From Zea mays (lineage: Eukaryota > Streptophyta > Magnoliopsida > Poales > Poaceae), in contig NC_050098.1 in assembly GCF_902167145.1 (NCBI RefSeq), positions 83,058,207 to 83,122,206 on the forward strand: a DNA stretch of 64,000 bases. Reading direction: 5' to 3'. Shown here one piece after another: positions 532 to 58,291 of this stretch. Numbering within the stretch: position 1 is the stretch's first letter; each line of letters starts with the position of its first letter. Under the pieces are notes generated by a model. That model was given only the letters and a program-made list of their open reading frames with translations, did not search any database and was not told the DNA's origin. The position numbers and the translations under genes were made by a program.

Positions 532-532
532 T

Positions 533-10200: not shown

Positions 10201-10201
10201 A

Positions 10202-11003
10202 TGTTGGGGACTTGTTCTCAAATGCTATGAGTTAAGAACAAGGCAACACAAAAAATGTTAAACGTTAAAGTCCTTCGTCCTTCGAAGCATTATTTCCCTT
10301 GAGGATATAATGATTTTCGGACGAAGGTTATGAAGGACATACCTTCATAAACACAACATATAATAATGAAGAAGAAAACATATGAAATGTAAAGGATAAC
10401 GTAAACAATTATGGGCCTGTTTGGTTTGATGGCTAACTTGACACACTTTGCCTAACTTTTGTGCCTAAGGTTAGTTCTTCAATTCGAACGACTAACCTTA
10501 GGCAAAGTGTGGCATATTTAGGCACGAACCAAATAGCCCCTATATATTATTATCAACTCATTTCTATATTATTATTATGGAAAAAATAGAAATGATATCA
10601 AATTACAAATGTACCTTCGGCTTAAAAGAAGGTGAAAGTACAAGCGTGACGCAAAAGCAAATGCCAAGTCATCGTGAACAGTACGGGGGCACTGTTCACC
10701 TATTTATAGGCGCGGGATACAGCCCATGTAAAATTACACCCATGCCCTTTACATTTGGTAGTAATTCTATAGTAATCTACCGAGGTCTGAATGGCCTTTT
10801 TATCTTTAAGTCGGTTTCCTTTTCTGCTATCACGCCGAAGCTTTCCTGCTCACAGCTTCGGCGCTGTATCAACCTTCGTATTCTTTGGGCTTCTCCCACT
10901 GTGGTGCCGATTCGAGTCCGAAGGTACCTGTTCACACATTATACTCTAGAAACATTGTTAAATCATGTTTTTGAGGACCTTCGGAAGCCGAAGGCCCCCA
11001 ACA
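10202..11003 (-). repeat. 5' LTR of B1 (with MITE)
   Basis: 802 bp = 671 bp LTR + 128 bp MITE + 3 bp TSD. The promoter on the - strand is TATAAATA at 10708-10701, followed by the palindrome at 10699-10674. Differences from the 3' LTR are limited to two substitutions, near 10878 and 10947. Confidence 0.93.
10413..10540. mobile_element. Tourist-like MITE in the B1 5' LTR
   Basis: 128 bp, absent from the sister LTR. Ends are GGGCCTGTTTGGTT and AACCAAATAGCCCC (imperfect terminal inverted repeats), flanked by a 3-bp TAT duplication. Inner inverted repeats CACACTTTGCCTAA and TTAGGCAAAGTGTG make a hairpin-capable body. A 3-bp TSD and these ends suit the PIF/Harbinger (Tourist) type, although TAT is not the usual TWA. 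No coding capacity. Confidence 0.85.
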
Positions 11004-11008
11004 GAAGG

Positions 11009-12122: not shown

Positions 12123-12990
12123 TTTGATGTAATCTTTTTCATTTTTCCCCTATGGCACCTTTTCCTTTCCAAAGGGGGAGAAAGGTTTTTAATGGGGCCA
12201 TAGCTTGTAATTTCTCTTTTCTTATTTAGCTCTACGAGAGCCAAATCCCCCAAAAGAATGTAAAATGTAAAATCTGAGCATGCACCATCGATTGTAGAGA
12301 GAAAAAAGAAGGGCAGGGAGAAGCTCGAAAGTCGTCCCCAAGGGGATGCAGAGCACAACGAAGCTACAAAAAAGTCATTCCTAAGGGAACGCATCGTAAG
12401 TTTTTGCTCAAAAGTCGTTCCTAAGGGAATGCAGAGCCAAATACCGCCGAAATATAAGGCAAAGAAGTTCAAAAGACGTTCCTAAGGGGATGCAGAACTT
12501 ATACCGCCGAAATAGAAGGTGAAGAAGTTCAAAAGACGTTCCTAAGGGGATGCAGAACTTACACCGAACAATAAGAGGTGAAGCCGAAAAATAAACGGCA
12601 AAGAGATTTCAGTCGTTCCTAAGGGAATGCAGAGTCTGGATGTGGCATTTCTTCAATAGCTTCAATTGCATTCATATACATACATTTAGACATTCGTAGG
12701 ATCATCATCATCATATCATAGAAGTACAGACATTTGTTTCGGCTCTAATGACAAGGCTTCGGCGAGAGCACAAAGAAGCAAATTTATGCTTTGTTGTGTA
12801 CGAAAAGAAGGGAAGGTGTTTTTTGCCTTCGGCTCAAAAAATACAAGTTTCGTCCACATCAAAGCAGTTCATACATGGATGCAAAGGTAAAAATATATTA
12901 CAAGGTATGGACAAATTTACAGACTAGTGTTTGATTCCTAAATTACAGTATCTTTTACAAGGTTAATTCAAAAATTTCTCTAGAGCTTTT
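12123..12990. repeat. A spacer with about 60-bp tandem repeats and purine tract
   Basis: No gene. From about 12290 to 12640 degenerate direct repeats of about 60 bp contain TTCCTAAGGGGATGCAGAAC and CGCCGAAATA; the cleanest units are at about 12417, 12478 and 12538. At 12797-12818 there is a purine run GAAAAGAAGGGAAGG followed by TGTTTTTTG, the same motif that flanks the antisense gene at its other end (16394-16410). The equivalent repeats occur in B1, B2 and B3 between gag and the antisense gene. Confidence 0.75.
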
Positions 12991-15900: not shown

Positions 15901-16007
15901 ACAACCAGTCCCGATTGTTTCATCACTTCAGAGATTGGGACAATCTCTGTGGCTTCGGTCTCCTCTCCGTCACGGGTCACCCTAGCAGTTGAACGTATTC
16001 TGGCCAT
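12991..16007 (-). pseudogene. Antisense gene of A (type II, PF04195-like), broken
   Basis: ATG at 16007 on the - strand, protein start MARIRSTARV. It has an acidic N-terminal part, then the conserved region with VVVFRSFFRAGLRFPL, YLHQLTPNAIVRLSIF and NEWFYVKADE, basic and Ala/Glu-rich low-complexity linkers, then in exon 2 a coiled coil. Exon 1 ends at 13915 (AAG before GTAAAA), exon 2 starts at 13841 (73-bp intron ending GCATAG) and ends at 13143, and a second intron of 74 bp runs 13142-13069. Lesions: frameshift or stop near 15098, TAA near 14923, TGA near 14893, a stop at about 13230 and one in exon 3. It is a homologue of the D gene and more distantly of the type I gene in B elements, and the intron 1 position is shared. 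Confidence 0.8.
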
Positions 16008-16494
16008 CAGGTGTTGAAATTCTTGTAGTTCTTACGAATGTTGATGATTTTTACAGTTTTGACGAAGCTCTCTCTTATGCCGAAGCTAAATCAAAATGAT
16101 GCTTTGCTTGAGAATGCGATGAGAAAGCTTCGGCTATGGTTAAATTTTTCAGCAGCACAACAGTGCAATGGCAATGAATCCTATGGTAACTTCACACCTA
16201 CCCGTCTGTTTATATAGTGCTGCAGGTGTGAAGGTGAATCGTCAAGTCGCCCGCACCCGCTCAACAGTCACCCGCACTCACTGAACGGTGGACCACGGCG
16301 CGTGGGAGATGAATCGCCAGATCGCGCGTACCCGCCGCATAGTGGGACCACCTCGCGCTCGTAATATTTTAATCATTTCTCGGCAACGAGCTTAGGGAAG
16401 GTGTTTTTCGGACCTTCGGCTTTCCGAAGCCTAGGACAATTTTTCACAGATCAAGCTTGTTACGAAAAACGATCTAGCACCGCGAAGGGGCTAA
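16008..16494. other. A: antisense-gene promoter region and polypurine tract
   Basis: Between the antisense ATG and the 3' LTR. On the - strand a TATA-like TATATAAACAG lies near 16215. The motif AGGGAAGGTGTTTTTCG is at 16394-16410. The putative polypurine tract GAAGGGG is at 16484-16490, four bases before the 3' LTR. Confidence 0.6.
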
Positions 16495-17106
16495 TGTTGG
16501 GGGTCTGCTTCGTCGCCGAAGGTCCTGTAAGAAGAAACACCTTCGGAGGATCAGCATAGAAATAATGTCGAAGCTACCTTCCATGGAACTTCGACATAAT
16601 AACATGACTTGAGACGAAGGGTTGCATCGACTTAAAGATGAAAAGACAGATCGGCCCATGATAATTTGTGTCTTGATTGTAATTGGTTGTAAAAGGTATA
16701 AATGTAAATTTACACAGGTTGCGCCCTATGCCTATAAATAGATGAACAGTACCCCCGTACTGTTCACGCTGACTTGTCCTCGCTCGTGCGTTACGCTTGT
16801 GCTCTCACCTTCTGTCAGGCCGAAGGTACAAATGTAATCTTATGTTATTTTTATTCATTCATGACTATATAATAAAAGATATATTATGATAGCATATGAT
16901 TATCCATGTTATTTCTCATGTTTCATATGCTTCGTCTGTCATTGACATATGCTGTGATTATGAAGGTACGTCCTTCATAACCTTCGTCCGAAGATCGTTA
17001 TATCCTTAGGGAAATAATGCTTTGAAGGACGAAGGGCATTAACCATTAACCTATTTTTGTGTTGCCTTGTTCTTAATTCATAGCATTTGAGAACAAGTCC
17101 CCAATA
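16495..17106 (+). repeat. 3' LTR of element A
   Basis: 612 bp, from TGTTGGGGG to CCCCAATA. It matches the partial 5' LTR over 531 bp with about 20 differences. The palindrome after the TATA box is kept except for its outermost base pair. Confidence 0.93.
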
Positions 17107-24310: not shown

Positions 24311-26328
24311 TTTGATTGTTAGTTCACCCGTTTGGCTAAAAATGTTTGGTTAGCACTTAAATAAATGTAGACTTGCCATGACTAAGCTTAATGTTGCCTA
24401 AGTGTCCTGTTTTATATGTTTCTTCTCTAGTTGATTGTAATATAGGAGTTCATAGACATGAATGCCTAGGTCCTATTTAAACTTACATTGTATTGGTTGC
24501 TTTTGTACGGTCAATAGAAGAACAAATGAACGATTAAGGTGAGCGTATTAAATGTGTGTACTTGTGATGTCGTGGTCATGTTGCGTAAATAAATAAAATA
24601 TTGTCATCTTTTTAATGGTGTTAATGCTGAACGTCGATAATGTGTAGATAACTAAAGCAAACATATGGTTGTTACGGTGTCTTCCATTTTATTGTTTAGT
24701 TCGCCACGGTGTCCTTGTATATCTTGTGCTACTTTTGTGCTACTTTTAGTATATTCATACATATGCATCTTGCATCTCATTTAGGACCGAGAGATGACGC
24801 TCATGCAAGTGGTGTGGTGCCAACCACAAGATGCCGTTGGTGGACGACCTGAAGAATGGACATAACCAGTGAATGCTCGCCAAGCGAGTACCCTCCCCCA
24901 GCAAACACTATCTAAGTGTTAAATTAAAGGCAAGCCCCGGTTTTATGCATAACCTGTTACTTATGCTATTTTACTACACTTATTGATTGTAGGATTGAAT
25001 ATGCACTTAAGTGTAGGAGTTGTTTGAAACCTTAGTTGCATGATCTCAGGAATCTCATTGAGATGAATACTAGTATGCTAAGTCGAGTAGCTGCTTACTA
25101 TTTAGGGATCGCGGTAGAAGTCGAGTGATTTTTCTAGCACTCGCGCGAGGTCAGGACATTGATTGTACCCACTTTCATATCATACTGATGTTGGGTTGTG
25201 GGCAACAATCCATGGGGATTGGTTGTTCACGGGATAAAAATCTGAATAAGGATTAAGGTGTGGTACCGTGAGTCAAGCGTTTGAACGTACTAAACATATA
25301 CCGAGAAATATGGTAAATCGGTAAGCCTAGTACCTGATTGAACCTGGCAGCAGATTGCCCTCCTCACACGACCTGAGACGAGGTCTCCCATTCCGGTTAT
25401 GGTGGGTACAAGTGCGGTCACTGCACGACGGCAGTCGGGGTCAGTGAGGCATTGTACGCCAAGGCGGTGAGCCCCTCTCTGTTGATGGGGAATCGATGGG
25501 GACGGTTGATGTGTGTGGGGACGGAGTGCCCCTACATGTCGTGTGTTTAGGTTTACCTTGCAAGGTTTAAAAACTCGATTCGAATCGTCTGCTTGTTGCA
25601 GCTAATGAGACTGCTTGATCCATGCTGCTACATTGAGTAAGCAGTGGAAATGAGTTGACTGGCAAAAAGGTTGATTGCTTAAAAATGTTTGATATCATGT
25701 ATGAGTAGCTAGGTACTCATCTAGTTTAAAAGGATCATACTAAAACTTGAAAAGCTAAAACTTGATTTTAGACTCAACTAGTGCTTTTGGCAAACCAAAC
25801 CCCTCAGCCAAACAGCTGCATGTCTAGAGGTAGAGGAGTAGACTCCTCACACTGGGTAAGTCTAGCGGAGTATTAGTATACTCAGCCTTGCTTGTGGCAT
25901 AATTTTTGCAGGTACCTCCTTGCTTTAGTTGATGGTGTGACTTGGCTTTCGTCCCTGCCACCGGGACAGACGGTCGAGTGGGTTACTGCTTCCGCAGGAG
26001 AGGACCAGGAGGAGTAGCGTGGCCAGGCTTCGCCATGTTACTCGGGTTTTCTCCGTTAGTTATTTCCGCTGCATTAAAATTTATGGTTATTATTTCTGAA
26101 ACTCCGATAATGTAATCACTAATTATACTTATTAAATTTGTTGTATCATGCTTTATTGTATTTCTCTGTGCCTCACCTTCGAGTGAGCTAGTGGTATTCG
26201 ATCCTGGTAAGTGGCTTTATCGGACTAGATCCGAGGGACTGACAGGTTATTCCTGTTTAAGTGTGTTGCTGCTCTTATGGGTGCGACTTGGGCACTTAAG
26301 CTGGAATAATTCGGGCGGTTACGCCACA

Positions 26329-33890: not shown

Positions 33891-35589
33891 TATATGTAGG
33901 TGTTTCCAGTACTTCAAGTGGTTGCAAGTTAATTAGTAGACTCTCTATATGACGCTAGATGTCTAGGTAGAATTCTGAAATTTGTGTTGCCCAAATTGTC
34001 GAGTTAGAGGTTTAATTCGATTGATGCCGATTAAGTGACTGAAAATAACTAGTAAAGAAGTTGTAGATGTAAAACTAGAAACTAGTATGCATATATCCTC
34101 GTATGATGTTGTGGTCTAAATGCGTATGTTTATGGTCGTGGATGAAAAGTAGTAGTGCTCAGGTGATGTCTAAGTTACAATGCAAACTATTGGTGAAAAG
34201 CGTTTCCATATTGATTGTTATAGAGAATGCATTGTTAATTGAGTATGGTACTTTTAGTGTGCAAAATAACTTGTATAAAAATTAGTAAGTCTACATGTTA
34301 GTTCTCACTTAGTTATTTTAACTCTAACAATTGTCAAAGTGTTAGAATAATTCAAGTCTCTAGAATATGGCAATTCTTGAATCGTTTAGGAGCTGAAATT
34401 TATTAATTTCTGTTTTGGGCTGCACGCACTGTTTTAGTTGTGCTGTATGTTTGATGAACTAAATTGTATTTTCTGTAGATATGTGCTATAGAAAAGTTGT
34501 AGACAACTCTATTATCTTACTTGTGTAAAAATTTGACAGGCGTAAGTCTGATCGTTTACGAGTTATGCTTTTTACAAATTCAGTAACTGAATCTGTCCAA
34601 ATTCTGTACAGATTTCAGAAACTGCATTGTTTGCTTAAGTTAATGTTAGAATCAGTCATTGTCGATTATAAGAAAGTTGTAGGTGCTTTTCTTATCTTGA
34701 TTGTGTTAAAATTTCATAACTAAAGGCCTGACGGTTTAAGAGTTATGAATTTGTCAACTTGATTGCTGTGTTCTGTCCACCGTCAGAACAGATTTTGAAA
34801 ACTGCGTCGTTTGATTCAGTTAGGCACAGAATTACTTTTTGGTGATTATAAAAGTTATGTAGTGCAATTTCCAAGCTTTCCAAAAAGTCTTGGATCACTA
34901 TTTTTGGAGGTCTGAAGATTAAGTTATGGATGTTTAAAGTCTGAAGACTGAATCTGTCCAGTTCTGGACAGCACAGCCTTCATAGTATATTTTACCCTTG
35001 ATACATGCTAAACCAGCCAAGGATGTTTATAAATAATTTGTAGAACATTTAATTAGCTTTCCAGAAAGTCTAGGATCACTTTGTTTGGATGTCTGAATCT
35101 TTTGTTGTGAATTTTTGAAGCTGCAAGTCTGAATCTGTCCAAATCTGGACATATCTGCTGTGTTTGCACAATTCGACCTTGCTAAGTGTTTAATCAGGTT
35201 GTGATGACAATACCAAAGTTGTAGAGCACTTTTTAAGCTTTCCCGAAAGTCCTAGTTTGATATTTTTGGACTAACCATTGAAGAGTTATGATTAAAACAA
35301 GCAACTGTTGTATTGCTTTCCAAAAATTCTGCTAGTGCTCATTTGATTGTTAGTTCACCTGTTTGGCTAAAAATGTTTGGTTAGCACTTAAATAAATGTA
35401 GACTTGCCATGACTAAGCTTAATGTTGCCTAAGTGTCTTGTTTTATATGTTTCTTCTCTAGTTGATTGTAATATAGGAGTTCATAGACATGAATGCCTAG
35501 GTCCTATTTAAACTTACGTTGTATTGGTTGCTTTTGTACGGTCAATAGAAGAACAAATGAACGATTAAGGTGAGCGTAGTAAATGTGTG

Positions 35590-36259
35590 TGTTGGGGACT
35601 TGTTCTCAAGTGCTAAGAGTTAAGAACAAGGCAACATAAAAAGTGTTAAGTGTTAAAATCCTTCGTCCTTCGAAGCATTATGTTCCTTCGGGAAATAATG
35701 AGTCTCGGACGAAGGTCATGGGAGGCATACCTTCGTAAACATAACAAGTAATGACGAAGGACTCACACAAAGCATGAAATATGATATGAGCATCACCATA
35801 AAATCATTTCTATTTTATTAACATGGAAAAACAGAAATGATTCCAAATTACAAATGTACCTTCGGTCCTGAGAGAAGGTGGAAAGTACAAGCGTGATGCC
35901 AAAAACAAATGCCAAGTAAGCGTGAACAGTACGGGAGTACTGTTCATCTATTTATAGACGCGGGACGCAGCCCACGTAAAATTACATCCATGTCCATTAC
36001 ATTTGTTAACGGTTTATGGAAATCTATTGAGGACCCCGAAGTCTTTTTATCTTTAAGTCGGTTCCCCCTTGTGCTATCGCGCCGAAGCTTCCCTGCGTAC
36101 AGCTTCGGCTGCCCTCGACCTTCGTCTGGCTCAGCCTTCGTCCTGGTCGTGCTCCATATCCATAATTCTGAATCCGAAAATACCTGTTCATATAATTCAC
36201 TTGGAAAGCATTGTCAAATCATGTTTTTGAGGACCTTCGGAGGACGAAGGCCCCCAACA
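35590..36259 (-). repeat. 3' LTR of B2
   Basis: 670 bp, from TGTTGGGG to CCCCCAACA. No difference from 42354-43023 was found by reading both. The reverse complement of the polypurine tract, GTAGCCCCTCGC, abuts it at 36260-36271. Confidence 0.96.
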
Positions 36260-36334
36260 GTAGCCCCTCGCAATATTAATTTGTAAATAATAAATTCAGA
36301 TTGCGATATGGACGAAGGCCTTGAGCCGAAGGTC

Positions 36335-36420
36335 CGAAAAAACACCTTCCCTTTGCTAGAATAGCAACATTCACTGACAAGCGGGGCCTTTTAACTTTCA
36401 ACGTCCTAGGCGTATAAATA
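36335..36420 (+). promoter_or_regulatory. Promoter region of the B2 antisense gene
   Basis: CGAAAAAACACCTTCCCTT at 36335-36353 and TATAAATA at 36413-36420, 146 bp before the ATG at 36566. Both elements recur at the same relative places in B1 (4151-4169 and 4229-4236). The promoter lies inside the element but outside the LTR. Confidence 0.65.
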
Positions 36421-36565
36421 AGAACACATCGTGAATTCATTTGGTACACACGCTTGCCTTTTGCTTCGGCCCACTAAAAATTTTTAGCTCTTGTTCATTG
36501 AGATTTGCTGGTCTTTTTGACTTCGAAGCTTCGGCCTCGGGAACAAATTTTTAGTGTTTCCGAAG

Positions 36566-39500
36566 ATGTCTGAAGACAAGAAGGTCCCTGCTGAGACGAA
36601 GCTGAGTCTCGAGGAGGAGAAGAATCTGGGGTTCCTGATAGCGATGGCAGAGACTAATACAGAGAAAATCACGAAGGAGATTCTCGAAGGTTTGTCCGAA
36701 GACACTGATGACAGCGACAGCTATGATGTAGAAAGTGATGGGGAAGAGGCCGAAGACCGACCGTGGCGACCAAGTCACTCAGTTTTTGGGAAAACAACCA
36801 TCAAGCAGAGTCACATTGATAATATGAGGGGGCGATACTTCCGAGACATATCTATTGTGAGAGCTGATGCCGGGGAAAAGACTTCTCCCACCCCTGAAGA
36901 GGATGAAGTTGTGATTTTCCGAAGCTTCCTCAAGGCTGGGCTTCGATTCCCCCTGAGCAATTTTGTTGTTGAGGTACTGAAAACATTCCAAATCTACCCT
37001 CATCAACTCACTCCCGAAGCTATTATAAGAATGGGGATTTTTGTCTGGGCTGCGAGAAGCCAAGGTTTGGAGCCAAACGCTAAAAGCTTCTGCAACATAC
37101 ACGAGTTATTGTATGAGACAAAGCCCTGGGGAAAGGAGCAATACCACAACAACTTTGGGTGCTACAGCTTCGGCGCCCGCTCCGGGTCAAGCTACCCTGT
37201 GCCAACCTTTCGGAAGAGGTGGCCCGGAGCCTGGATGTCTGAATGGTTTTATGTGAAAAATGATCTAACAGCGCAAAATAATGTCAAGAGTATCATTATG
37301 TACCCAATTTGGCAACGCTTCGGACTTCGAAGGCCGAAGGTTGAAATGGATGAGGCAGCCGAAGAATGCCAAAGAGCCTTCGGCGCAGTCTGCTCCTTCA
37401 TTGGGACAAGGGACTTGGTCCAGGAGCACATTGCCTTCAGGGTATGGCCACTTGCAGAAAAGTGGGAAATGCCGAAAGAAACCATCAAAGAGTCCGACGA
37501 AGGCGGGCTAGTCAGATTAAAATACACATTCAAATATGCAGATAAATTTATTGAACCTGATGATGACTGGCTGAAAAGCATTGAAACATTAAGTGATGAA
37601 TTACTTGGGGCATACTCGAAGGCTGAAAATACTGCACTATCAGCAGCCTTCGGAGGCCGAAAGAAGAAGAGACTGAACCGAGTGTTTGATGCAATCGGGT
37701 TCTTCTACCCTGATTATTGTTATCCCATCCGAAGGCAAAAAAGGAAAAATATAACCTCTGAAAAAGAAGAAGCTGAAACCGCTCCTAGCGAGCCAGAACC
37801 AAAAGGAAAAAGGTTGAAGGTCTTCACACATCGACCACGCCATATTGAACCAGCTTCGGTGCCGGAGTTTACCGGGAAAACTTCTTCAGCCACCGAAGCT
37901 GAAAAACTAATCAAGTCAGCCTTGTTGCCAGAGATCGCAGAAACGGCCGAAGTGCCACCAAAGATTGAATCAGAACAATCAAACATTTTGTTGTCAGAAA
38001 CAAAAGAGAAAACCGAAGCGCCGCTCACAGAAAAAATTGAGGAAGTAAGAGAAGCAACTGAGGGCTCCAAAACATTAGAAGTTTTGAGTCCTACAGCAAT
38101 CGTTGGGACAGCAAAACACCAAAAGGGGCCATTAGTGACCCCAAAAAGGAAAAGAATGGTAAATGTACTAGACGTCTTGGAGACGATTAAGTCTTCAAGT
38201 ACAATTTCAAAAAAGAGTGTTGATGTTGCTGAAGGTTCTACTGAAGCTTCGGCTCAACAAGCTGAAGCTGAAGCTGGGCCTTCAGAGCCCTTCAAAGAAC
38301 AACCTTTTGAAGCCGAAGCAGTAAAAATTCCGGAACCAATATTAGTTGAAGAAACGGGCACCGTCATCCCCGAAGCACCTGCCGGCATGCATGATTACAT
38401 CATACGACATGCTTCGGGGAAAAAGCTATCCGAGGAAGAAGCTTATGAGGCCAACCATTATGCAAAGGAGCTGAAATATCCGAAGGGGGCAGTAATATTC
38501 AATGGAACAAACGAAGATGACTTCTTATACTGCCTGCCTGATAACAAAGAGCTATCCGTCTGCCGAGAGATGGCGAGAAGCATAGGCTTTCCGAAGCTTG
38601 AAGCTGGGTTAAGTGCCATGACAAAAGAGGATCTCGCAGACAGCCTTGCGTATAATAGCTTGAAGGTACCGGAATTAAACACTTGAAAAAACCCCCTTAT
38701 TATTTTTACGCACATCATTCCTTTTTCCTTATCTGAATTCTTTTTCGAATAGGGCCTGATCCTAAGCAACGCGCTAAGAGCGCAGAAGAGCGCCGAAGAT
38801 GAAAGTTATGAAATTGCGTTTAATAATTTACGCTCCGAAGTTATCAAGCTGAGAAATGAAGCTTTGGAAAAAGATAAAATTCTGTTTACATTGGTGGATA
38901 AAGTGAAAAAAGACGAAGCCGCTTCAAAGGCCCAATCCGAAGCTCAAAAACGCGAGATTAAAGATCTTCGGAAACAACTGGCTAGAGCTAAAGAGGAGCG
39001 CGCGCTTGAGGAAACGAAGCGTGAACTTAGTGATTTTATGGTCAACAAATTGGAATCAAGAGTTAAGGAGCTTCGCACATCGCAGTGGAAATGCTATGTT
39101 AAATCTATAGAATGCGTGAATAAAATTAAAAACAGCTTTGCTAGCGTCGGCGCCTTTTCCAGCGAAGAGAATTTTTCTCGAGGCAATCCCGAAGATCCGC
39201 TGGAATGGATTAGCCACGAAGCAGAGGCCTTCGAAGAAATTCTGAACAGCCGTGGCGATATATGCGCTTTTTCAGGCGCTAGAGGAATTACTTCTGTGTT
39301 AGAAAAGAAGGGTTGTGGGCACGTAAAACTTTTAGCTCAGTCCGAAGCTACCTTACCCTTCGAAGATATCAAGGACCCCTCAGCCGAAGCAAGCGTGGTT
39401 GCTGGCAAATTTTTTACTGATATCTGGAACGACGGCGGCCGAGGAATGGCACAAGAAATTATCGAAAGGAGCGAAAAAGGCATCCACGAAGCTAGGAAAG

Positions 39501-39772
39501 TGGCAGAGACTGCCGAAAAAAGTACGGAGCCCGAAAGACAATTAGGTATTAATTAGTCGTTCTTATTGTGTTGCAGTTTTTGTTTCACACTCTACTCACA
39601 GTTTATAATAGTAATGAAAAAATGTTCTTTTGCTCCCGAAGGTACCGCATCGACTGTCGATCCCCAAACAAAAGGGGATGATGAAATTAAACAAATGGCC
39701 GAAGCTATCATGGACAAAGTTGTTGATCAACTTTTAAATGAAGTCGCCGAAGCAGTTTTAAGAGAAGACTAG
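36566..39772 (+). CDS. Intact three-exon antisense gene of B2 (type I, PF04195-like, 1007 aa)
   Basis: Exons 36566-38665 (700 codons), 38753-39545 and 39642-39772; introns 87 bp (GTACCG...AATAG) and 96 bp (GTATTA...CGAAG). The phases fit and no stop occurs before TAG at 39770-39772. I take ATG 36566 (MSEDKKV) as the start; upstream codons in frame lack an ATG. Parts: acidic residues 40-65 (SEDTDDSDSYDVESDGEE); a region at about 105-265 like PF04195 (VVIFRSFLKAGLRFPLS, YPHQLTPEAIIRMGIF, SEWFYVKNDL); basic, NLS-like clusters near 364 (RKKKRLNR) and 525 (PKRKRM); Glu/Ala-rich linkers; a conserved block near 611-700 (DFLYCLPDNKE); a coiled coil in exon 2; a short conserved C-terminus in exon 3. 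The gene runs opposite to gag and genomic RNA. Its role is unknown. A nuclear or chromatin function is inference from the basic clusters and coiled coil only. Confidence 0.85.
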
Positions 39773-40779
39773 ATGTTATTTAGAAAAACAGTTAAATTGT
39801 AATCTATGTAACATTTGTACATTTGAATGTAATATACAAGTTTCTTTCCATTATTCAATTCTTTACGATGCATGAAACTGTACATACATACCATTTTTGA
39901 GCCTTCGGCGAAAAAACACCTTCCCTTCTTTTCATGCTTCGTGAAGAAAACATTCTTCGTTAAAACTGTTCCGAAAAAACACATCCATGCTTCGTAAAAA
40001 CAGCCACTGAAGCTAATCGTCCATGCTTCGTGAAAGCATTCTCCGAAGCTATTTTCCGAAGATTATCATTATATTCCCTTGTGACTTTGCACAATTTGCA
40101 TTTTCTCAAATCATTCTTTCGAAGGTTAGTACTGTGTGCCCTTCTTTTTGCCGTATGCAACATGATGTATGATGCTTATGCTATGCGAAATGATGTGATG
40201 ATGTTATGTTATGCAAATGACGTCTGTTCCGAAGATACACACAAAACACATTCGTAAGCTCTGCATTCCCTTAGGAACGTCTTTGGAGCTTCTTCGTCTT
40301 TTACTTAGACGATCTCAGCGTTGACTTTTCGCTGTAAGCCTCCCTTAGGAGCTTCTTCGCCCTTTACTTAGGCGGTATCAGCGTTGACTTTTCGCTGTAA
40401 GCCTCCCTTAGGAGCTTCTTCGCCCTTTACTTAGGCGGTATCAGCGTTGACTTTTCGCTGTAGGCTCTGCATTCCTTTAGGAACGACTTCTGAGCAGAAA
40501 ACTTACACTGCGCTCCCTTTGGAGCGGCTTTTTGTGACTTCACAAACTTACTCTGCGTTCCTTAGAACGACTTTTCGTTACTCCGAAGGATTTTTAATTC
40601 GAAGGTCCTCCTTGGTAACGGAAAAAATTTTAAGCTTCAGCAACTTAAGCTTGTGGATCAAATAGATCTTCCTCGTGGAAAACAACGACATTATTACATG
40701 AAAACTATCAATGTTTTTTTTTTGCTTGACAGAAAATAAAACTGAATAAGAAAGACTGCTATCAAAGGTAGGATATGTG
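39773..40779. repeat. B2 spacer: convergent 3' ends and tandem repeats
   Basis: The antisense gene and gag converge here. TTGTAATC and TGTAATATAC at 39797-39840 suit a poly(A) region of the antisense gene. CGAAAAAACACCTTCCCTT at 39909-39927 repeats 36335-36353 exactly. From about 40255 to 40470 there are three near-identical units of about 62-64 bp with CGCTGTAAGCCTCCCTTAGG and GGCGGTATCAGCGTTGAC. No other gene. Confidence 0.75.
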
Positions 40780-42291
40780 TCAATAAATGTGTTTCGACTC
40801 TGGCACAGTGCTGTTGACTGTGCGAGCTTCGGACTGCTCTCTGAAGTCCCTCTGCTGTGGAGCGTATTGACTCCCTTCTGGCTGTTGACCTTGCTGCAAT
40901 GGAGGTGGGGGCGGAAGCTGTTGCCAGGAAGCTTGAGGTTGACTTGCGGAAGCTACGGAAGCTGCAGGGTGGTTGTCTATGTATTGTGGGATATAAGGCG
41001 GATGACACGAAGCAGTATGCATGACCTGCTTCGGCTGAGCTTGTTGAGATGCAGCTTCGGCAATTTCCTTTTGCTTCTGGATTGTAATGTGGCACGACCT
41101 AGTGGTATGGCCCTTGCCTTCTCCACAGAACAAGCAAAACAGTCTCCTTGGCTGATCTCCGAATCTTCCGCCGAAGCCCCTGGCGCCTCTGCCTCTTGGA
41201 GCTGGTGGCCGGAAGGAAGTTTGTTGTTGTCCCGAAGCCTGTGAGGAGCATTGCGGTCTGTTCTGATTCCCCTTATCATCATTCTGAGTGTTGTGGATGG
41301 ATCGGACATGCCTCGGGTAATATCTTCCTCCGAAGCCCCTGGTCATCTCAGAAAATCTGAAGGCCTCCTCCCTTCTTTGGCGAAAGTCATTGTCGGCACG
41401 AATGTACTCATCCATCTTTTGGAGCAATTTCTCCAAGGTCTGAGGAGGCTTCCGAGCAAAGTATTGAGCTGCAGGTCCAGGACGAAGCCCCTTGATCATG
41501 GCTTCGACAACGATTTCATTGGGCACCGTTGGTGCCTGCGCCCTCAATCGTAAGAACCTTCGGACATAAGCCTGAAGATATTCTTCGTGATCCTGAATAC
41601 ACTGGAAGAGGGCTTGAGCTGTAACCGGCTTCGTTTGAAATCCTTGAAAGCTGGTTAGTAACATATCCTTCAGCTTCTGCCATGAAGTGATTGTTCCTGG
41701 CCGAAGGGAGGAATACCAGGTCTGAGCAACATTCCTGACGGCCATGACGAAAGACTTCGCCATGACTGCAGCGTTGCCCCCGTACGAAGACACTGTTGCT
41801 TCGTAGCTCATCAAGAATTGCTTCGGGTCGGAGTGGCCGTCAAACATGGGGAGCTGGGGTGGCTTATAGGATGGAGGCCAAGGAGTAGCCTGCAGCTCAG
41901 CAGACAGAGGAGAAGCATCATCAAAAACAAAATTTCCCTGATGGAAATTATCATACCAGTCATCTTCGTTGACGAAGCCCTCCTGATGAAGGTCTTTCTG
42001 ATGAGGCCTTCTGTTCTGCTCATCGTGAGTAAGATGGCGGACTTCCTCAGAGGCTTCGTCTATCTGCCTTTGCAACTCGGCTAGGCGGGCCATCTTCTCC
42101 TTCTTCCTTTGTACTTGTTGGTGTAGCATCTCCATATCCCTGATTTCTTGGTCTAGCTCCTCTTCCTGAAGTGTCGGGCTGACAGCCTTTCTCTTCTGGC
42201 TTCGGGCCTCCCGAAGAGAGACGGTCTCCTGGTTGATGTCCAACGGTTGCAGTGTTGAAGCCCCAGTCGCTGAAGCTTTCTTCGGCGCCAT
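40780..42291 (-). CDS. gag: gag of B2, intact, 503 aa
   Basis: ATG at 42291 on the - strand (MAPKKASATG), stop TGA at 40782-40780. An N-terminal acidic and coiled-coil segment (DQEIRDMEMLHQQVQRKKEK) is followed by the Retrotrans_gag core (SFVMAVRNVAQTWYSSLRPG, FQGFQTKPVTAQALFQ), a basic Gln/Arg/Gly-rich linker (RGRGARGFGGRFG), one zinc knuckle CLFCGEGKGHTTRSC and a Pro/Gln-rich tail. The knuckle is CX2CX5HX4C, one residue longer than the usual CX2CX4HX4C, and B1 and B3 share this. The product should form the particle and package the RNA. It is expressed from the LTR promoter at 42720-42686. No protease or RT follows. Confidence 0.93.
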   Translation of the reverse strand: MAPKKASATGASTLQPLDINQETVSLREARSQKRKAVSPTLQEEELDQEIRDMEMLHQQVQRKKEKMARLAELQRQIDEASEEVRHLTHDEQNRRPHQKDLHQEGFVNEDDWYDNFHQGNFVFDDASPLSAELQATPWPPSYKPPQLPMFDGHSDPKQFLMSYEATVSSYGGNAAVMAKSFVMAVRNVAQTWYSSLRPGTITSWQKLKDMLLTSFQGFQTKPVTAQALFQCIQDHEEYLQAYVRRFLRLRAQAPTVPNEIVVEAMIKGLRPGPAAQYFARKPPQTLEKLLQKMDEYIRADNDFRQRREEAFRFSEMTRGFGGRYYPRHVRSIHNTQNDDKGNQNRPQCSSQASGQQQTSFRPPAPRGRGARGFGGRFGDQPRRLFCLFCGEGKGHTTRSCHITIQKQKEIAEAASQQAQPKQVMHTASCHPPYIPQYIDNHPAASVASASQPQASWQQLPPPPPLQQGQQPEGSQYAPQQRDFREQSEARTVNSTVPESKHIY

Positions 42292-42334
42292 AGCTTCCGA
42301 AGGTGTTCAAAAAAGCTCGAAGTGGAAGTGAGTT

Positions 42335-42352
42335 CACCGGAGGTGGGCGCCA
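42335..42352 (-). other. Primer-binding site of B2
   Basis: TGGCGCCCACCTCCGGTG on the - strand, one base from the 5' LTR, identical to A and B1. Confidence 0.82.
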
Positions 42353-42353
42353 A

Positions 42354-43023
42354 TGTTGGGGACTTGTTCTCAAGTGCTAAGAGTTAAGAACAAGGCAACA
42401 TAAAAAGTGTTAAGTGTTAAAATCCTTCGTCCTTCGAAGCATTATGTTCCTTCGGGAAATAATGAGTCTCGGACGAAGGTCATGGGAGGCATACCTTCGT
42501 AAACATAACAAGTAATGACGAAGGACTCACACAAAGCATGAAATATGATATGAGCATCACCATAAAATCATTTCTATTTTATTAACATGGAAAAACAGAA
42601 ATGATTCCAAATTACAAATGTACCTTCGGTCCTGAGAGAAGGTGGAAAGTACAAGCGTGATGCCAAAAACAAATGCCAAGTAAGCGTGAACAGTACGGGA
42701 GTACTGTTCATCTATTTATAGACGCGGGACGCAGCCCACGTAAAATTACATCCATGTCCATTACATTTGTTAACGGTTTATGGAAATCTATTGAGGACCC
42801 CGAAGTCTTTTTATCTTTAAGTCGGTTCCCCCTTGTGCTATCGCGCCGAAGCTTCCCTGCGTACAGCTTCGGCTGCCCTCGACCTTCGTCTGGCTCAGCC
42901 TTCGTCCTGGTCGTGCTCCATATCCATAATTCTGAATCCGAAAATACCTGTTCATATAATTCACTTGGAAAGCATTGTCAAATCATGTTTTTGAGGACCT
43001 TCGGAGGACGAAGGCCCCCAACA
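42354..43023 (-). repeat. 5' LTR of B2
   Basis: 670 bp, apparently identical to the 3' LTR. The promoter on the - strand is TATAAATA at 42720-42713, followed by the palindrome at 42711-42686 (10-bp perfect core with a GGGA loop). Confidence 0.96.
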
Positions 43024-44803
43024 GTGTGTACTTGTGATGTCGTGGTCATGTTGCGTAAATAAATAAAATGTTGTCATCTTTTTAATGGTGTTAATGCTGA
43101 ACGTCGATAATGTGTAGATAACTAAAGCAAACATATGGTTGTTACGGTGTCTTCCATTTTATTGTTTAGTTCGCCACGGTGTCCTTGTATATCTTGTGCT
43201 AGTTTTGTGCTACTTTCAGTATATTCATACATATGCATCTTGCATCTCATTTAGGACCGAGAGATGACGCTCATGCAAGTGGTGTGGTGCCAACCACAAG
43301 ATGCCGTTGGTGGACGACCTGAAGAATGGACATAACCAGTGGATGCTCGCCAAGCGAGTACCCTCCCCCAGCAAACACTATCTAAGTGTTAAATTAAAGG
43401 CAAGCCCCGGTTTTATGCATAACCTTTTACTTATGCTATTTTACTACACTTATTGATTGTAGGATTGAATGTGCACTTAAGTGTAGGAGTTGTTTGAAAC
43501 CTTAGTTGCATGATCTCAGGAATCTCATTCAGATGAATACTAGTATGCTAAGTCGAGTAGCTGCTTACTATTTAGGGATCGCGGTAGAAGTCGAGTGATT
43601 TTTCTAGCACTCGCGCGAGGTCAGGACATTGATTGTACCCACTTTCATATCATACTGATGTTGGGTTGTGGGCAACAATCCATGGGGATTGGTTGTTCAT
43701 GGGATAAAAATCTGAATAAGGATTAAGGTGTGGTACCGTGAGTCAAGCGTTTGAACGTACTAAACATATACCGAGAAATATGGTAAATCAGTAAGCCTAG
43801 TACCTGATTGAACCTGGTAGCAGATTGCCCTCCTCACGCGACCTGAGACGAGGTCTCCCATTCCGGTTATGGTGGGTACAAGTGCGGTCACTGCACGACG
43901 GCAGTCGGGGTCAGTGAGGCATTGTACGCCAAGGCGGTGAGCCCCTCTCTGCTGACGGGGAATCGATGGGGACGGTTGATGTGTGTGGGGACGGAGTGCC
44001 CCTACATGTCGTGTGTTTAGGTTTACCTTGCAAGGTTTAAAAACTCGATTCGAATCGTCTGCTTCTCGCAGCTAATGAGACTGCTTGATCCATGCTGCTA
44101 CATTGAGTAATAAGTGGAAATGAGTTGACTGGCAAAAAGGTTGATTGCTTAAAAATGTTTGATATCATGTATGAGTAGCTAGGTACTCATCTAGTTTAAA
44201 AGGATCATACTAAAACTTGAAAAGCTAAAACTTGATTTTAGACTCAGCTAGTGCTTTTGGCAAACCAAACCCCTTAGCCAAACAGCTGCATGTCTAGAGG
44301 TAGAGGAGTAGACTCCTCACACCGGGTAAGTCTAGCTGAGTATTAGTATACTCAGCCTTGCTTGTGGCATAATTTTTGCAGGTACCTCCTTGCTTTAGTT
44401 GATGGTGTGACTTGGCCTTCGTCCCTGCCACCGGGACAGACGGTCGAGTGGGTTACTGCTTCCGCAGGAGAGGACCAGGAGGAGTAGCGTGGCCAGGCTT
44501 CGCCATGTTACTCGGGTTTTCTCCGTTAGTTATTTCCGCTGCATTAAATTTTATGGTTATTATTTCTGAAACTCCGATAATGTAATCACTAATGATACTT
44601 ATTAAATTTGTTGTATTATGCTTTATTGTATTTCTCTGTGCCTCACCTTCGAGTGAGCTAGTGGTATTCGATCCTGGTAAGTGGCTTTATCGGACTAGAT
44701 CCGAGGGACTGACGGGTTATTCCTGTTTAAGTGTGTTGCTGCTCTTATGGGTGCGACTTGGGCACTTAAGCTGGAATAATTCGAGCGGTTACGCCACAGC
44801 TCA

Positions 44804-53360: not shown

Positions 53361-54573
53361 AAAGTGGTGTCAGAGTTATGTTGACTCTAGGTCGTTAGAC
53401 TAGTTAGAAATGGAAAGCCCAGTCTGTTGAAAATATGCTTATTTTGCTCATACAAATTTATTTTACTAATCTTGCCTTTTTCAAAATTCAAACTAAGGTG
53501 ACATTTTCTTCTTGTAGATGGTGCGCACTCTCCAACCACCTGCGTGAACACCAACAGTATCCCTCCACCTAGGCAGGCTCCGTTCTACCCAGTTGTGGTG
53601 TTAGAAGTACCGATGGAGCTGCACCACCTCCATGTGGAGAATTGAGTGATCTTGGAGGACAGCTCTGAGGAAATTTTGGCAACACCCACTCCATTGTCAG
53701 AGTCTCAACACCCACACCAGAATCATCTTCAGCACCGCCAGTTCCAGCACCTCAAGCCCCGGCTCCTGGAGGCGACGACCCAGATGATTCTAGTGATGGT
53801 GGAGACGATGATGATGAAGAATAAGAAGGCGAAGAAGAAAACAACAATGAAGAAGCCAACAATGAACAAGAGGATAACTTTGTTGGGATGTGGCCTGCCA
53901 CCGAGCATTACACCTCAATGTTCGAGACAGGACACTTCCCAAACCTACTGCAGAATGTACTACATGCACTGGGAACCTACGTCTGACCTCTCTATGACAC
54001 ACGGCGAGTGTCTGAGCCCCCTCGGGCTTGTTACTACATCACTCGTGTGCATATCAAAGTGATGGATGTAGGAGATAGATGTTTCAGGACTCTATCAGCC
54101 CATGAGTCCCTGATGCCGCTATCTACCTACGCTGCCTCGGTCAGCAATGCTGCTCGAAGAGCTTTGTGGTCCCTCAGCCACACCTATCGGCAGCAACTGC
54201 ACGACACGGCATACAAGCATCTTTCTCTGCGTCCTTGTGGAGAGAACCAGACAGGTGTTGTTCCAAGTGATTTGGAGAAGATCCCCTCAACACCCTCGTA
54301 GGTGTGGTGGTAGGTCTTAACTCTGACTTGGACAGTGCTACCCTGGACCTCTCAAGGGTACATGAGGAGCTAGAGGATGCACATTCAAGGATTGCAGCCC
54401 TGGAAGCTCAACTTGAAGGAAGGAACTCCCCTGAAGCTCAAGTCCAGGCCTTAGCTATGTCCCCACCTCGCAAGAGGATACACTATGGAGCCCCAGGATC
54501 AATCACTAGGCTGCTTTCGGACATTATGGGTCATGATGCAATAAGTTCTATTTTGCGATTAAACGATGGAAAA
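53361..54573 (+). pseudogene. F interior: decayed ORF of unknown function
   Basis: Frames around 53519-54573 show an acidic stretch (near 53790-53870, rich in Asp, Glu and Asn), a conserved-looking segment (ACYYITRVHIKVMD, RCFRTLSAHESLMPLSTYAA) and a heptad-like segment at about 54330-54420 (DLDSATLDLSRVHEELEDAH), interrupted by several stops. It is not the usual chromovirus gag. It may be the only protein of a non-autonomous Tekay-type element. D is inserted at 54574. I do not recognise the family. Confidence 0.45.
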
Positions 54574-55202
54574 TGTTGGTCACTTGTTCTCAAATGTTGT
54601 GAATCAAGAACAAGACAACACAATTGTTAAAGATAAAGGACCTTCGTCCTCCAAAGCATTGTCTCCTTTTGGATTCAACGATAATCGGACGAAGGTCATG
54701 AAGGACATACCTTCATCATGTTATGAATAAATTGAAATACATAAATACAAGTATTCATGCAAGTATAATAGATACAAGTCATTGATTCATTCATATTAGC
54801 ATTCCTTCAAACTTAAAAGAGTATTGACAGAATATACGTTACATTAAAACCTTCGGCTTGCTCGAAGGTGATGACGAGAGAGAGATATTGCAATCCAGTG
54901 TGAACAGTACAGTGCTACTGTTCATCTATTTATAGGCACGAGACGCAGCCCAGGTAAAATTACATTTATGACCCTCGACATTTGTTTACAAGCATGACTC
55001 AAACCACTCGGGTCTATATGGTCTTTTCATCCTCTTCTTAATCTAAACTGAAGCTGATGGTAGCTTTGGCACTTGGCATCGTTGCTTCTAAGCGAAGTAT
55101 TCGTCTTGAGAACCTTCGGTAGAAGGACAAAAGACTTCAGTATAACTTTGCCGAAGGTGTCTTTGTCTTGAGGACCTTCGACAGAGAAGAAGACCTCCAA
55201 CA
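54574..55202 (-). repeat. 3' LTR of D
   Basis: 629 bp with family-typical ends but clearly diverged from the B and A LTRs. The palindrome is 9-10 bp with a different loop (CAGTGC), so the stem is kept while the loop changes. Confidence 0.85.
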
Positions 55203-55562
55203 GTAGCCTCTTCACAGTGCTAGATCGTTATTTCATAACGAGCTCGCGAAAAACAAGAAGGCTTCGGAATGCCGAAGGTCCAAAAAACACCTTCCCTGAG
55301 CTTGTTATAAAAAAATGATTAAAATATTCCAAGTGTCGTCGGTCCACCGTTCAGCCAGTATACACGCTTTAGCGGTTCGCCTTCTTCTCCTTCAGGGCTA
55401 TATAAATAGACAAGTTGGTGAGAAGTTACCGCATCATTCATTTCTATTGCACCGTTGTGCTGTTGAAAATTTTAACCGAAACCGAAGTTCTCTGCATTGT
55501 ACTTTCAAACAAGCACTTCATCGCTTAAGATCAACTTCGTCTAAAAGAAGCTGAACATCAAA

Positions 55563-58291
55563 ATGGCCAGATTAAGATCCACTGCACGGGTGTCTTGCGA
55601 GGGAGATGAAACTGAAGCAACTGAGACAACACCCATATCAGAAATGATGAGGCGATTAGGGCTTGTTGTGCAAGAGGAAGCTATTGCCGAAGGTATCTTT
55701 AATGCCGAAGCTAAACGAACCGTGGCCGAAGTTGCGAGTGATAACGAAAGTGAAGAGGGCGGTAGTATTTTGTGTCCAACTAAGCCTAGCCATGTTGAAT
55801 TTGGAAAATCCACAGTAAAGGCAGAGGATTTAGTTGTGATGAAGAAACTAGGGTATTTTGGAGGGAATGATGATGAATTAGTTTGCTTTGTTGGAGAAGA
55901 AATAATTCTGGAGCCGAAGGAAGATGAAGTTGTGGTATTCAAGAGCTTCTTCAAGGCGGGGCTTTGGTTCCCCCTATAAGAAATGATAGGTGAAGTTTTA
56001 AAGAAGTTTGAGATCTATCTACATCAGTTGACCTCGAACGCTATTGTCAGGCTTAGTGTTTACATCTGGGCTCTGCGAAGCCAAGGAAAGAGCGCTAACA
56101 CCGAAGGGTTCTGTCGAGTTCATGAGGTTCATTACCAAACAAAGGCAAGGGCTGATGGTCTGCATAAAAATTTTGGGTGCTACAACTTTGCATACCGAAA
56201 GGATACGAAGGCCCCGGTGATAGGCTATCCGACCAAGTGGCCCACTGGTTGGATAAGTGAATGGTTCTATGTTAAGGCAGACGAGAAGAAAAGAGAAAAG
56301 CTTATGAGGATGGTGATGAGTCCTCTGCGATTAAACTTTGGCATGAGTCAGCCCCTATGCAACATGCAGCTGGAGTCTCCTTGCCAGCTAGCTGAAGTGG
56401 AATTTAGGGTCGTGGCTGAACATATCAGCCCGAGAGATTTGGTGCAAGAATATCTGGCAAACCGGACATTCCCAACTTCTGGTGGCTGGGGAATGCCGAA
56501 GAAGAGAGAAGGGGGGAAGAAATATGAGCTTGTCTGTCTACCGTATCGCTTCAAGTTTCAGAAAAGATTTAAAGAGCCATGCACTGAATGGTTAGAATTG
56601 ATAGAGACCATGTGCAATGAAATTCTTGGAAACTATACAAAGAAAGAAGATTAGTTAATGACTGCTGCCTTCGGCACCCGACCAAAGCGAAGGCTGAACC
56701 GTGTGATGGATGCTCTTAACTTTGAGTACCCTGACTATGAAAGGCTTGATGAAGGGGCCGGAGGAGTCAAGAGGAAGATGATTGTCAGTATTCTAAGTAG
56801 GCATGCTATCCGGTCGGTTAAAGAAGACCAAGAGGCTTTAAAGAAGCAAAAAACAATACCGAAGCCGAAAGTATCGACTGCCAAAAAACGAAAGCTTGCC
56901 GAGATGTCCTCTGAGAAGACGAAGATGCAAGATGTGTCGAAGCAAAATACGAGCCCTTCTTCGTCTTCTGCTGCTGAGGTCTCAGAGATTTTAAATGGTA
57001 ATGACTGAGTCTTTCCCATTTGCCCTGCTAAGTCCTCTAAGGTTGGAACTGACAAGCCTCTTATATACAAGGGAAATCTCATCGACTGCTGAGAGGAAAA
57101 ATGGGGGCCAGAAGAAATGACTTATGATTAATATACTGGAAGCAATTGAACATACCCTGCCCTCGGCTTCGGTAGACAAAGTTACTAAATCTACTGATGT
57201 CGAAGCTACCGTCGCAGCTGAAGATGAAAATCTCACAACCACTCTATCATAAATCGATAGACTCATATCAAACGTGGTTGCGGAGAAAGAGGTAGCCACA
57301 TTAATTTCTGATAAGGGGAAGAAAATTGAAGAAACCACTTCGAAAGGAGTGAATTTCGACCAACGACACTTGGGCGGCCAGCAGCTCTCCGAAGAGGACA
57401 TATCAGAGCGAAAAGAATTTGTTATCTCCTGCGGCTACCGGATGGGGTCAATGATCTTCGATGAAGTCGATGAAGAAATTGTGGGATGCATTCGCGACCG
57501 CGCTGGTGCTAAAATTATAAGCACCATGTCCAAGAGTTTTGGATTCTCGAAGCTTGAAAAAGACATCAGCTGCTACAGACGCTAACACATCATCGACAGC
57601 TTATTTTACTCGAACTTCAAAGTAAGGCTCCTTTGCAAGTTATTGTTGATATCTTCATGTTGATTTAAGTATTCTAACTTTAGTTCATTTTTACAGAGAA
57701 TATTATTAAGCAAAGTTTTAAAAATGCAACAAGATGATGAAGACAGAAAGAATGAAATTGTTGTCAAGGGTTTCAAAGATAAAATCAAGAAACTTGAAGA
57801 TTCTTTAAAAGAAAAAGATGATTTGCTGCATTCAGTCGAAGGATCGCTTGCCGAAGCGCAAACTCAAAATAAGAAATTGAGCAAGGAGTTGAAAGAGGCT
57901 CAGATGCTTTTGCAAGAGAACTCCAGCCGATTCAACTGTGAAACCAAAGATTTGAACATGACCATCAAGGTTGAGGCTGAAAGGAACTTGAAACTCAGTG
58001 AAGCACTCAGAACTCTTAAAGATAAATGTTTTAATTTTGCAAGCCAATGCACTGCTTGATTAAACGGTATATTCAATTCAGTCGGAGTTGCATCCGAGAA
58101 AGCTAGCCTCTATACCGAAGATGTCCCCGTAGCACTTGAATGTGTCGAGAAAGAGGTTGACGTCCTCGACGAAGTTATAACTAGCCACGGTGACTTCTAT
58201 GCGCTAGTGGCTTCTAGTGGTACGGCTGTCGCTTTCATAAAAGCCGGATGCAACCATGCAAGGGCTGTTAACAGGCCAAATTTCAACCTTT
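55563..58291 (+). pseudogene. Antisense gene of D (type II), broken and truncated
   Basis: ATG 55563 (MARLRSTARV); TATATAAATA at about 55399 gives a 5' leader of about 130 nt. One frame carries the protein to 57008 with only two in-frame stops, TAA 55977-55979 and TAG 56652-56654. Then a frameshifted zone and the frame 57274-57585 follow. Intron 1 is 57622-57696 (75 bp, GTAAGG...TTACAG), placed as in A. Exon 2 begins RILLSK and is a coiled coil; it has a TGA near 58058 where A encodes Trp. Conserved blocks are VVVFKSFFKAGLWFPL, YLHQLTSNAIVRLSVY and SEWFYVKADEKKREK. Element K cuts it at 58292. Confidence 0.82.

What the first reader, a model, noticed from the sequence alone, without database searches (positions are those of the whole stretch)
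36566..39772. Intact, spliced 1007-aa gene running antisense inside a gag-only LTR retrotransposon
Seen: three exons with GT-AG introns and compatible phases, no internal stop, own TATA box, own poly(A)-like region, beside an intact gag and apparently identical LTRs. The decayed copies in B1, B3, A and D share the design. Known: extra antisense ORFs occur in Tat-lineage elements such as Grande, some with the PF04195 domain. Inference: the gene is selectable cargo or a helper (packaging, nuclear entry, anti-silencing), since it stays open while pol is absent. I know of no established function.
Basis: partly seen in the sequence, partly recalled or inferred. Interest (0 to 1): 0.88.

Follow-up and report, generated by a model that had tools for sequence, protein, structure and literature searches.

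The report
Antisense spliced gene inside maize retrotransposon
A very young jumping element, probably of maize, that has lost its copying enzymes still carries, on its opposite strand, a three-exon gene for a large protein that natural selection keeps intact; such antisense genes are known in this group of elements, but their job is still unknown.

Summary
At 36566-39772 a three-exon gene (1007 codons, GT-AG introns) lies antisense in a 7434-bp LTR element (35590-43023; identical 670-bp LTRs, 5-bp target duplication, empty site at 24554) with intact gag and no pol.

It is a real gene. Against copy F, third codon positions differ 44.6%, first/second 17.5/11.4%, in frame across both junctions, while introns are flat; dN/dS is 0.10 (gag 0.07). 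Both introns are GT-AG in 30 of 30 genomic copies (fetched by exon 2 similarity, this element included).

It is not an isolated oddity. The protein carries TRP28 (PF04195), reported antisense in 97% of Retand-lineage clusters (Vicient 2025). Element, genome and a neighbouring pol-bearing, gag-less element D with the same primer site fit maize Zeon (gag) and Cinful (pol).

Most likely it is an accessory gene for the element's own propagation: a coiled-coil, probably nuclear protein, with pol supplied in trans. The new points are the exon structure, selection on the gene in a pol-less element, and mosaic copies that differ sharply over its TRP28 part. No spliced product appeared among 51 informative database proteins, so splicing and function remain inferred.

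The parts
35590..43023 (-). Element E: gag-only LTR retrotransposon, 7434 bp; its sense strand is the minus strand
   Evidence: identical LTRs, 5-bp TSD, empty site
42354..43023 (-). 5' LTR, 670 bp
   Evidence: 0 of 670 substitutions against the other LTR
35590..36259 (-). 3' LTR, 670 bp
35585..35589 (.). Target-site duplication GTGTG, left copy
43024..43028 (.). Target-site duplication GTGTG, right copy
24554..24558 (.). Empty site in the duplicated flanking DNA (GTGTG once)
42336..42352 (-). Primer binding site (TGGCGCC...), one base after the 5' LTR; the first 33 bases after the LTR are identical in D, E and F. The matching tRNA was not determined
   Evidence: sequence compared
36260..36271 (-). 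Polypurine tract next to the 3' LTR (GCGAGGGGCTAC)
   Evidence: read from sequence
40780..42291 (-). gag, 503 aa, PF03732 plus a CX2CX5HX4C zinc-knuckle-like motif
40281..40462 (.). 63-bp tandem repeats between gag and the antisense gene
36413..36420 (+). TATA-like box (TATAAATA) of the antisense gene, kept in F and G
36566..38665 (+). Antisense gene, exon 1 (700 codons); TRP28/PF04195 at residues 116-178 of the protein (120-182 of the scanned ORF)
38666..38752 (+). Intron 1, phase 0
   Evidence: GT-AG in 30 of 30 loci; no codon-position pattern against F
38753..39545 (+). Exon 2; its first 131 residues are modelled as one long helix
39546..39641 (+). Intron 2, phase 1
   Evidence: GT-AG in 30 of 30 loci; in F, L043, L045 and L046 the AG lies 3 nt upstream
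39642..39772 (+). Exon 3 with stop codon
3403..11003 (-). Copy F: gag-only element nested in D; antisense gene 4381-7598 with one stop and one 1-nt deletion, gag with three stop codons
45847..53219 (+). Copy G: older, decayed gag-only element in the opposite orientation
1..17106 (+). Element D (left LTR cut by the window edge; interrupted by F): protease-like, RT/RNase H and integrase ORFs, no gag found; antisense TRP28 gene 15794-13173 with both introns
54572..58263 (+). Fragment H with a related antisense-type gene (55683-58263)

Best explanation
Element E is a recently inserted, non-autonomous Ty3/gypsy retrotransposon of the TRP28-bearing (Retand/Tat) kind, most likely maize Zeon. Its antisense gene is an old accessory gene of the lineage. 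Shown here: the gene is kept by purifying selection over three exons whose junctions are kept. Inferred: Pol II starts at an internal promoter about 150 nt before the ATG; the transcript is spliced twice and makes a protein with an N-terminal TRP28 region, a variable charged linker with basic nuclear-import-like motifs, a coiled coil and a conserved C-terminal region; the protein dimerises, enters the nucleus and binds the element's DNA or RNA to aid its expression, nuclear step or integration. Reverse transcriptase and integrase come in trans from D-type partners that share the primer site. Because the packaged RNA is the opposite strand, the antisense introns are not spliced out of it and survive each round of copying. 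Pol is lost from these elements while gag and the antisense gene are kept, which suggests that the antisense protein, like Gag here, works best for the RNA or DNA that encodes it, or is not supplied by the partner.
For: Codon-position differences E-F over the three exons 17.5/11.4/44.6%, each exon with the same pattern; introns flat. dN/dS 0.097 with F (bootstrap 0.070-0.125), N-terminal 390 codons 0.051, gag 0.069; 0.114 to 0.226 with seven complete genomic copies. GT-AG in 30 of 30 loci, 9 of them with intron-length changes and 30 of 30 with stops in the unspliced intron-1 frame; 24 of 30 open over the covered part. D, 28-46% identical in protein, has an intron at the matching place 1 (73 nt) and a candidate intron 2 (74 nt), neither a multiple of three. 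Eight of 8 further copies keep full-length gag; in 4 of 4 measured, LTRs differ by 0-1 base with matching 5-bp TSDs. PF04195 above cut-off. Exon 2 helix 2-131 with pLDDT mostly near 95. Shared primer site and LTR ends in D, E, F.
Against: No RNA was examined. None of 51 informative database proteins (of 273 retrieved) joins exon 1 to exon 2, and 28 of them read on through an intron 1 that happens to be open, so in some copies a protein without splicing is possible. The exon 1 fold was not obtained (mean pLDDT 34.9), and no solved structure matched the profiles credibly, so DNA binding is taken from Vicient 2025. Loci were chosen by similarity to an open exon 2, which favours intact copies. dS with F (1.5) is near saturation, exon 2 alone is saturated, and G gives no usable dS. 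Supply of pol by D-type elements is inferred from shared ends and from print.
Confidence: 0.6

Rival explanations
1. Anti-silencing factor: the antisense protein binds members of its own family and lifts host silencing, as VANC proteins do for VANDAL DNA transposons (recalled).
For: Selection on a gene not needed for copying itself; TRP28 predicted to bind DNA (PMC11963269, parts 1-4 of 5 seen). 38 of 41 Cinful-zeon sub-families are down-regulated in the maize mop1/RDR2 mutant while other families rise (PMC2774947, passages), so this family answers unusually to loss of the silencing pathway.
Against: No direct evidence; the mop1 response has other possible causes, and a freely diffusing anti-silencer would not need to be kept by every copy.
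Confidence: 0.2
2. Regulation by antisense RNA: what matters is the antisense transcript (double-stranded RNA with the genomic RNA), the protein being secondary.
For: The gene overlaps the 3' half of the genomic RNA; Vicient and Casacuberta 2020 (PMC7264820, parts 1-2 of 3 seen) name this possibility.
Against: Selection is on the amino-acid sequence: dN/dS about 0.1 and a 3-periodic pattern in all exons.
Confidence: 0.08
3. No spliced gene: exon 1 alone makes a 706-residue protein and the rest is a separate ORF or remnant.
For: In E the exon 1 ORF runs on to a stop at 38684; no spliced product was found in the databases.
Against: Exons 2 and 3 are as constrained as exon 1 from their first codons; exon 2 of E has no in-frame ATG before residue 96; GT-AG kept in 30 of 30 loci; intron 1 diverges faster than its flanks (frame identity 0.44 against 0.78 and 0.85 in 27 read-through ORFs).
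Confidence: 0.06
4. Captured host gene carried as cargo.
For: Gene-like anatomy with introns.
Against: Relatives in several diverged elements at the same place, with the TRP28 domain reported across flowering-plant Retand elements and no match outside TEs (PMC11963269); the PF04195 search rang in 0 of 14 control genomes, which are not stated to be plants, so that control says little.
Confidence: 0.03

Closest known systems
Antisense TRP28 (PF04195) ORFs of Retand-lineage elements (Vicient 2025, PMC11963269)
   Same: Domain, antisense orientation next to the 3' LTR, tandem repeats nearby
   Different: That survey started from reverse transcriptase, so gag-only elements could not enter; in the parts seen it describes ORFs, not exons, introns or selection tests
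Maize Zeon (gag) and Cinful (pol) (PMC8547701, PMC2412881, PMC3091746, PMC5311732, passages)
   Same: E: 7434 bp, LTR 670, gag only (Zeon 7.3 or 7.459 kb, LTR 0.6 kb or 698 as I read the tables). D: right LTR 612 bp, internal part about 8357 bp without nested F, gag-less (Vicient 2025, Zea mays 1 and 2: LTR 587/585, internal 8365/8245, GAG NO)
   Different: No published Zeon or Cinful sequence was compared; the antisense gene of Zeon is not mentioned in the passages seen
Grande gene23 (Gomez-Orte 2013; known here only through PMC7264820 and PMC11963269)
   Same: Antisense gene with its own promoter near the 3' LTR; nuclear product
   Different: Not compared by sequence; whether it has introns was not seen
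TR-GAG elements (search listing only; definition recalled)
   Same: LTRs, primer site, gag, no pol
   Different: A second, antisense gene under selection

Membership tests
Retand-type antisense TRP28 accessory gene | PF04195 above the curated cut-off | tested here: met
   42.3 bits against 26.2, E=9.2e-11
Retand-type antisense TRP28 accessory gene | Antisense to gag/pol, next to the 3' LTR | tested here: met
   gene on +, gag on -; in D antisense to RT and integrase
Retand lineage | Reverse transcriptase groups with Retand | not tested
   E has no RT; the RT of D was not placed in a tree
Retand lineage | Tandem repeats between coding part and antisense gene (about half of clusters) | tested here: met
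   40281-40462, 63-bp unit; related arrays in F, G and D
Zeon | Gag only, about 7.3-7.5 kb, LTR 0.6-0.7 kb | tested here: met
   7434 bp, LTR 670, gag, no pol
Zeon | Sequence identity to published Zeon | not testable with these tools
   no named maize record is held
Cinful (element D) | Pol without gag, matching size | tested here: met
   RVT, RNase H and rve ORFs; protease just below its cut-off (20.4 against 20.7 bits); E's gag finds no credible match in D
Functional LTR insertion unit | Identical LTRs, TSD, primer site, polypurine tract | tested here: met
Spliced protein-coding gene | Spliced transcript | not testable with these tools
   no RNA reads; proteins gave 0 joined of 51 informative
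Spliced protein-coding gene | Kept splice sites and codon constraint across junctions | tested here: met
Captured host gene | Confined to one or a few copies, with a host parent | tested here: not met
   present in 30 of 30 loci and in diverged elements D and H; a host parent was not searched for separately

The most novel reading that the evidence does not exclude
The antisense protein is a self-favouring nuclear factor, possibly an anti-silencer, with an exchangeable recognition part. Each RNA class of a divided retrotransposon (gag-only and pol-only) keeps its own version because it works mainly on the copy that makes it; the N-terminal TRP28 part is swapped between otherwise nearly identical elements, as a specificity domain would be.
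Probability: 0.15. Interest if true: 0.8.

Novelty: new variant of a known kind. Interest (0 to 1): 0.5.

Why it matters
The role of antisense TRP28 genes is an open question in print. A gag-only element isolates it: pol has been lost, yet gag and the antisense gene stay under purifying selection, so the gene cannot merely be dragged along with pol. The exon model here can be checked directly against strand-specific long reads. Copies that share most of their sequence but differ sharply in the TRP28 part offer a natural comparison of versions.

Tried and rejected
Structure: exon 1 model mean pLDDT 34.9, so no fold search was made; exon 2 is only good for the long helix. Solved structures: one match at E=0.13 with the exon 1 profile, taken as chance; none with the exon 2 profile. 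IMG/VR scan: two pattern matches, no confirmed relative. Search for spliced products: searches gave 285, 3275 and 2665 proteins, 120 listed each, 273 distinct retrieved; 0 joined among 51 informative. Comparison with G: 11 stop codons, dS not estimable. D-type copies in the genome: the genome search did not complete; F-type likewise. Intron 1 as an in-frame linker was considered because it is 87, 90 and 72 nt in E, F and G and open in F; rejected because of stops in 30 of 30 loci, 7 of 30 length changes in it, 73 nt in D and faster divergence. Literature: searches gave listings only; papers opened are named in the full report. Sanz-Alferez 2003, Gomez-Orte 2013 and PMC2596294 are not held.

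Full report
What is there. Element E spans 35590-43023 with its sense strand on minus. Its two 670-bp LTRs are identical. GTGTG flanks it on both sides and occurs once at 24554-24558, in a 98.5%-identical duplicate of the flanking DNA that lacks the element. On the sense strand follow a primer site, a 503-residue gag with PF03732 and a zinc-knuckle-like motif, a spacer with 63-bp repeats, and a polypurine tract. Pol pieces of element D find nothing in E. On the other strand, between spacer and 3' LTR, lies the reported gene with exons 36566-38665, 38753-39545 and 39642-39772.

Is the gene real? F, a second young copy in the window (2 substitutions in 671 LTR positions), is 75% identical to E over this gene. 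Over all exons the differences at codon positions 1, 2 and 3 are 17.5, 11.4 and 44.6%; exon by exon 17/11/42, 17/11/50 and 24/21/51. The introns show no such pattern: 56/44/46 and 25/38/31. dN/dS is 0.097 (bootstrap 0.070-0.125), 0.051 for the first 390 codons and 0.239 for the linker; exon 1 out of frame gives 1.12 and 1.85; gag gives 0.069. Limits: dS of 1.5 is near saturation, exon 2 alone is saturated, F has one stop and one 1-nt deletion in the gene and three stops in gag, and G (11 stops) gives no usable dS.

Copies in the genome. The window lies in a 2.18-Gb genome of 655 contigs whose contig C1 has 308,450,363 bases, which fits maize from memory. A search with exon 2 had 34,366 first-look candidates; 145 were scored, all open over the match at 92-100% identity. 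The 30 loci fetched (E among them) all carry gag on the opposite strand. Both introns are GT-AG in 30 of 30; intron length differs from E in 9 of 30 (7 in intron 1, 2 in intron 2); unspliced intron 1 has stops in 30 of 30; 24 of 30 are open over the covered part; dN/dS is 0.18 and 0.29 within and 0.24 between the two groups. These loci were picked for a matching exon 2, so they are biased towards intact copies. Eight longer stretches were then fetched. All 8 have full-length gag matches; one (L044) was placed so that it lacks the N-terminal part of the antisense gene. In the 4 of 8 whose ends the script recognised, elements are 7364-7435 bp, LTRs differ by 0, 1, 0 and 1 bases, and 5-bp target duplications match. 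Against E, the antisense gene has dN/dS 0.114-0.226 in the 7 usable copies, with no stop in the codons compared; gag has one stop each in L043 and L046. Intron 1 is GT-AG in 9 of 9 (E, F and seven copies). Intron 2 has GT in 9 of 9 and AG at E's place in 5 of 9; the other four have it 3 nt upstream, in frame.

How old is the design? Element D in the same window is protein-level related only (46% over the TRP28 part, 28-31% beyond), yet has an intron at the same place (73 nt) and a candidate second intron (74 nt). H reads as if it had the first intron too, seen only in translation. G keeps the GT of intron 2 but has lost both consensus ends of intron 1. TATA boxes stand at -153, -152 and -174 in E, F and G; those listed for D and H depend on approximate starts.

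The protein. TRP28 near the N-terminus; three basic motifs at 365, 415 and 526 that look like nuclear-import signals; a helix over residues 2-131 of exon 2. Exon 1 could not be modelled. DNA binding rests on the prediction reported by Vicient 2025; nuclear location was shown for Grande gene23 as cited in PMC7264820 and PMC11963269.

Who supplies pol? D has RT/RNase H and integrase ORFs and a protease match just below cut-off, no credible gag, and the same 33 bases after the LTR as E and F. D's LTRs differ by 18 of 529 positions, so D is a relative of the partner, not the partner itself. PMC8547701 (passages) describes maize Cinful as coding for pol and Zeon for gag, a near-mutualism. Sizes agree with Zeon and Cinful in PMC2412881, PMC3091746 and PMC5311732 (passages) and with Zea mays 1 and 2 of Vicient 2025.

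Mosaics. Copies are recombinants. E and L039 are 98.8-100% identical over the antisense gene but 80-81% in the left part of each LTR and 94-96% in the middle of gag. L043 and L045 are 97.8-100% identical over tiles from exon 1's end through most of gag, but 77-82% over about 1.2 kb of the N-terminal (TRP28) part, with LTR tiles at 90-94%. The amino-acid change between such versions is modest (E against L043, first 390 codons: dN 0.095, dS 1.47), so this is exchange between old versions rather than fast adaptive change. It fits co-packaging and template switching (inference).

Spliced products. If databases held spliced RNA, proteins joining exon 1 to exon 2 should appear. Among 273 retrieved proteins 51 have at least 8 residues before the exon 2 start: 0 are joined, 28 read through an open intron 1, and 23 begin in intron-like or unassigned sequence. 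The collection is mostly metagenomic, so this is weak, but it does not support splicing, and it shows copies in which a protein can be made without it.

Interpretation. An accessory protein for the element's own propagation fits best: it is old, constrained like gag, kept where pol is lost, and made from its own promoter. Antisense placement also lets introns survive, because the packaged RNA is the other strand. Whether it acts in expression, nuclear import, integration or against silencing is open. PMC2774947 (passages) reports 38 of 41 Cinful-zeon sub-families down-regulated in mop1, a hint that silencing and this family interact in an unusual way.

Known or new? Antisense TRP28 genes are known (97% of Retand clusters, PMC11963269, parts 1-4 of 5 seen; PMC7264820, parts 1-2 of 3 seen). 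PMC6317226 was seen in passages only and mentions an Ogre intron in the sense strand. In the listings of nine searches I saw no title or abstract on exons, introns or selection in a Zeon antisense gene; most of those papers were not opened, and key older ones are not held.

Noticed in passing
20102-26331 and 28001-44801: A roughly 6.2-kb stretch is duplicated in tandem order at 98.5-99.2% identity; the second copy is split by about 3.1 kb at 30764-33890 and by element E.
   Followed up: partly
3403-11003 within 1-17106: Gag-only element F is inserted into pol-bearing element D with TSD GAAGG; F's right LTR carries an extra stretch of about 130 bp around 10413-10540.
   Followed up: partly
L039-L046 compared with E: Mosaic elements: copies nearly identical over most of their length differ sharply over the TRP28 part, the left part of the LTR or the middle of gag, as if by template switching.
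   Followed up: partly
17459-18091: A further TRP28 (PF04195, E=1.5e-17) ORF of 210 aa on the minus strand, from another element.
   Followed up: no
61183-61606: 7.6 copies of a 56-bp GC-rich tandem repeat.
   Followed up: no
protein collection: Exon 2-type ORFs are common in public metagenome proteins, mostly as hypothetical proteins; three listed (P0201, P0229, P0237) are named predicted RNase H-like nuclease. They look like plant retroelement DNA in those samples.
   Followed up: no
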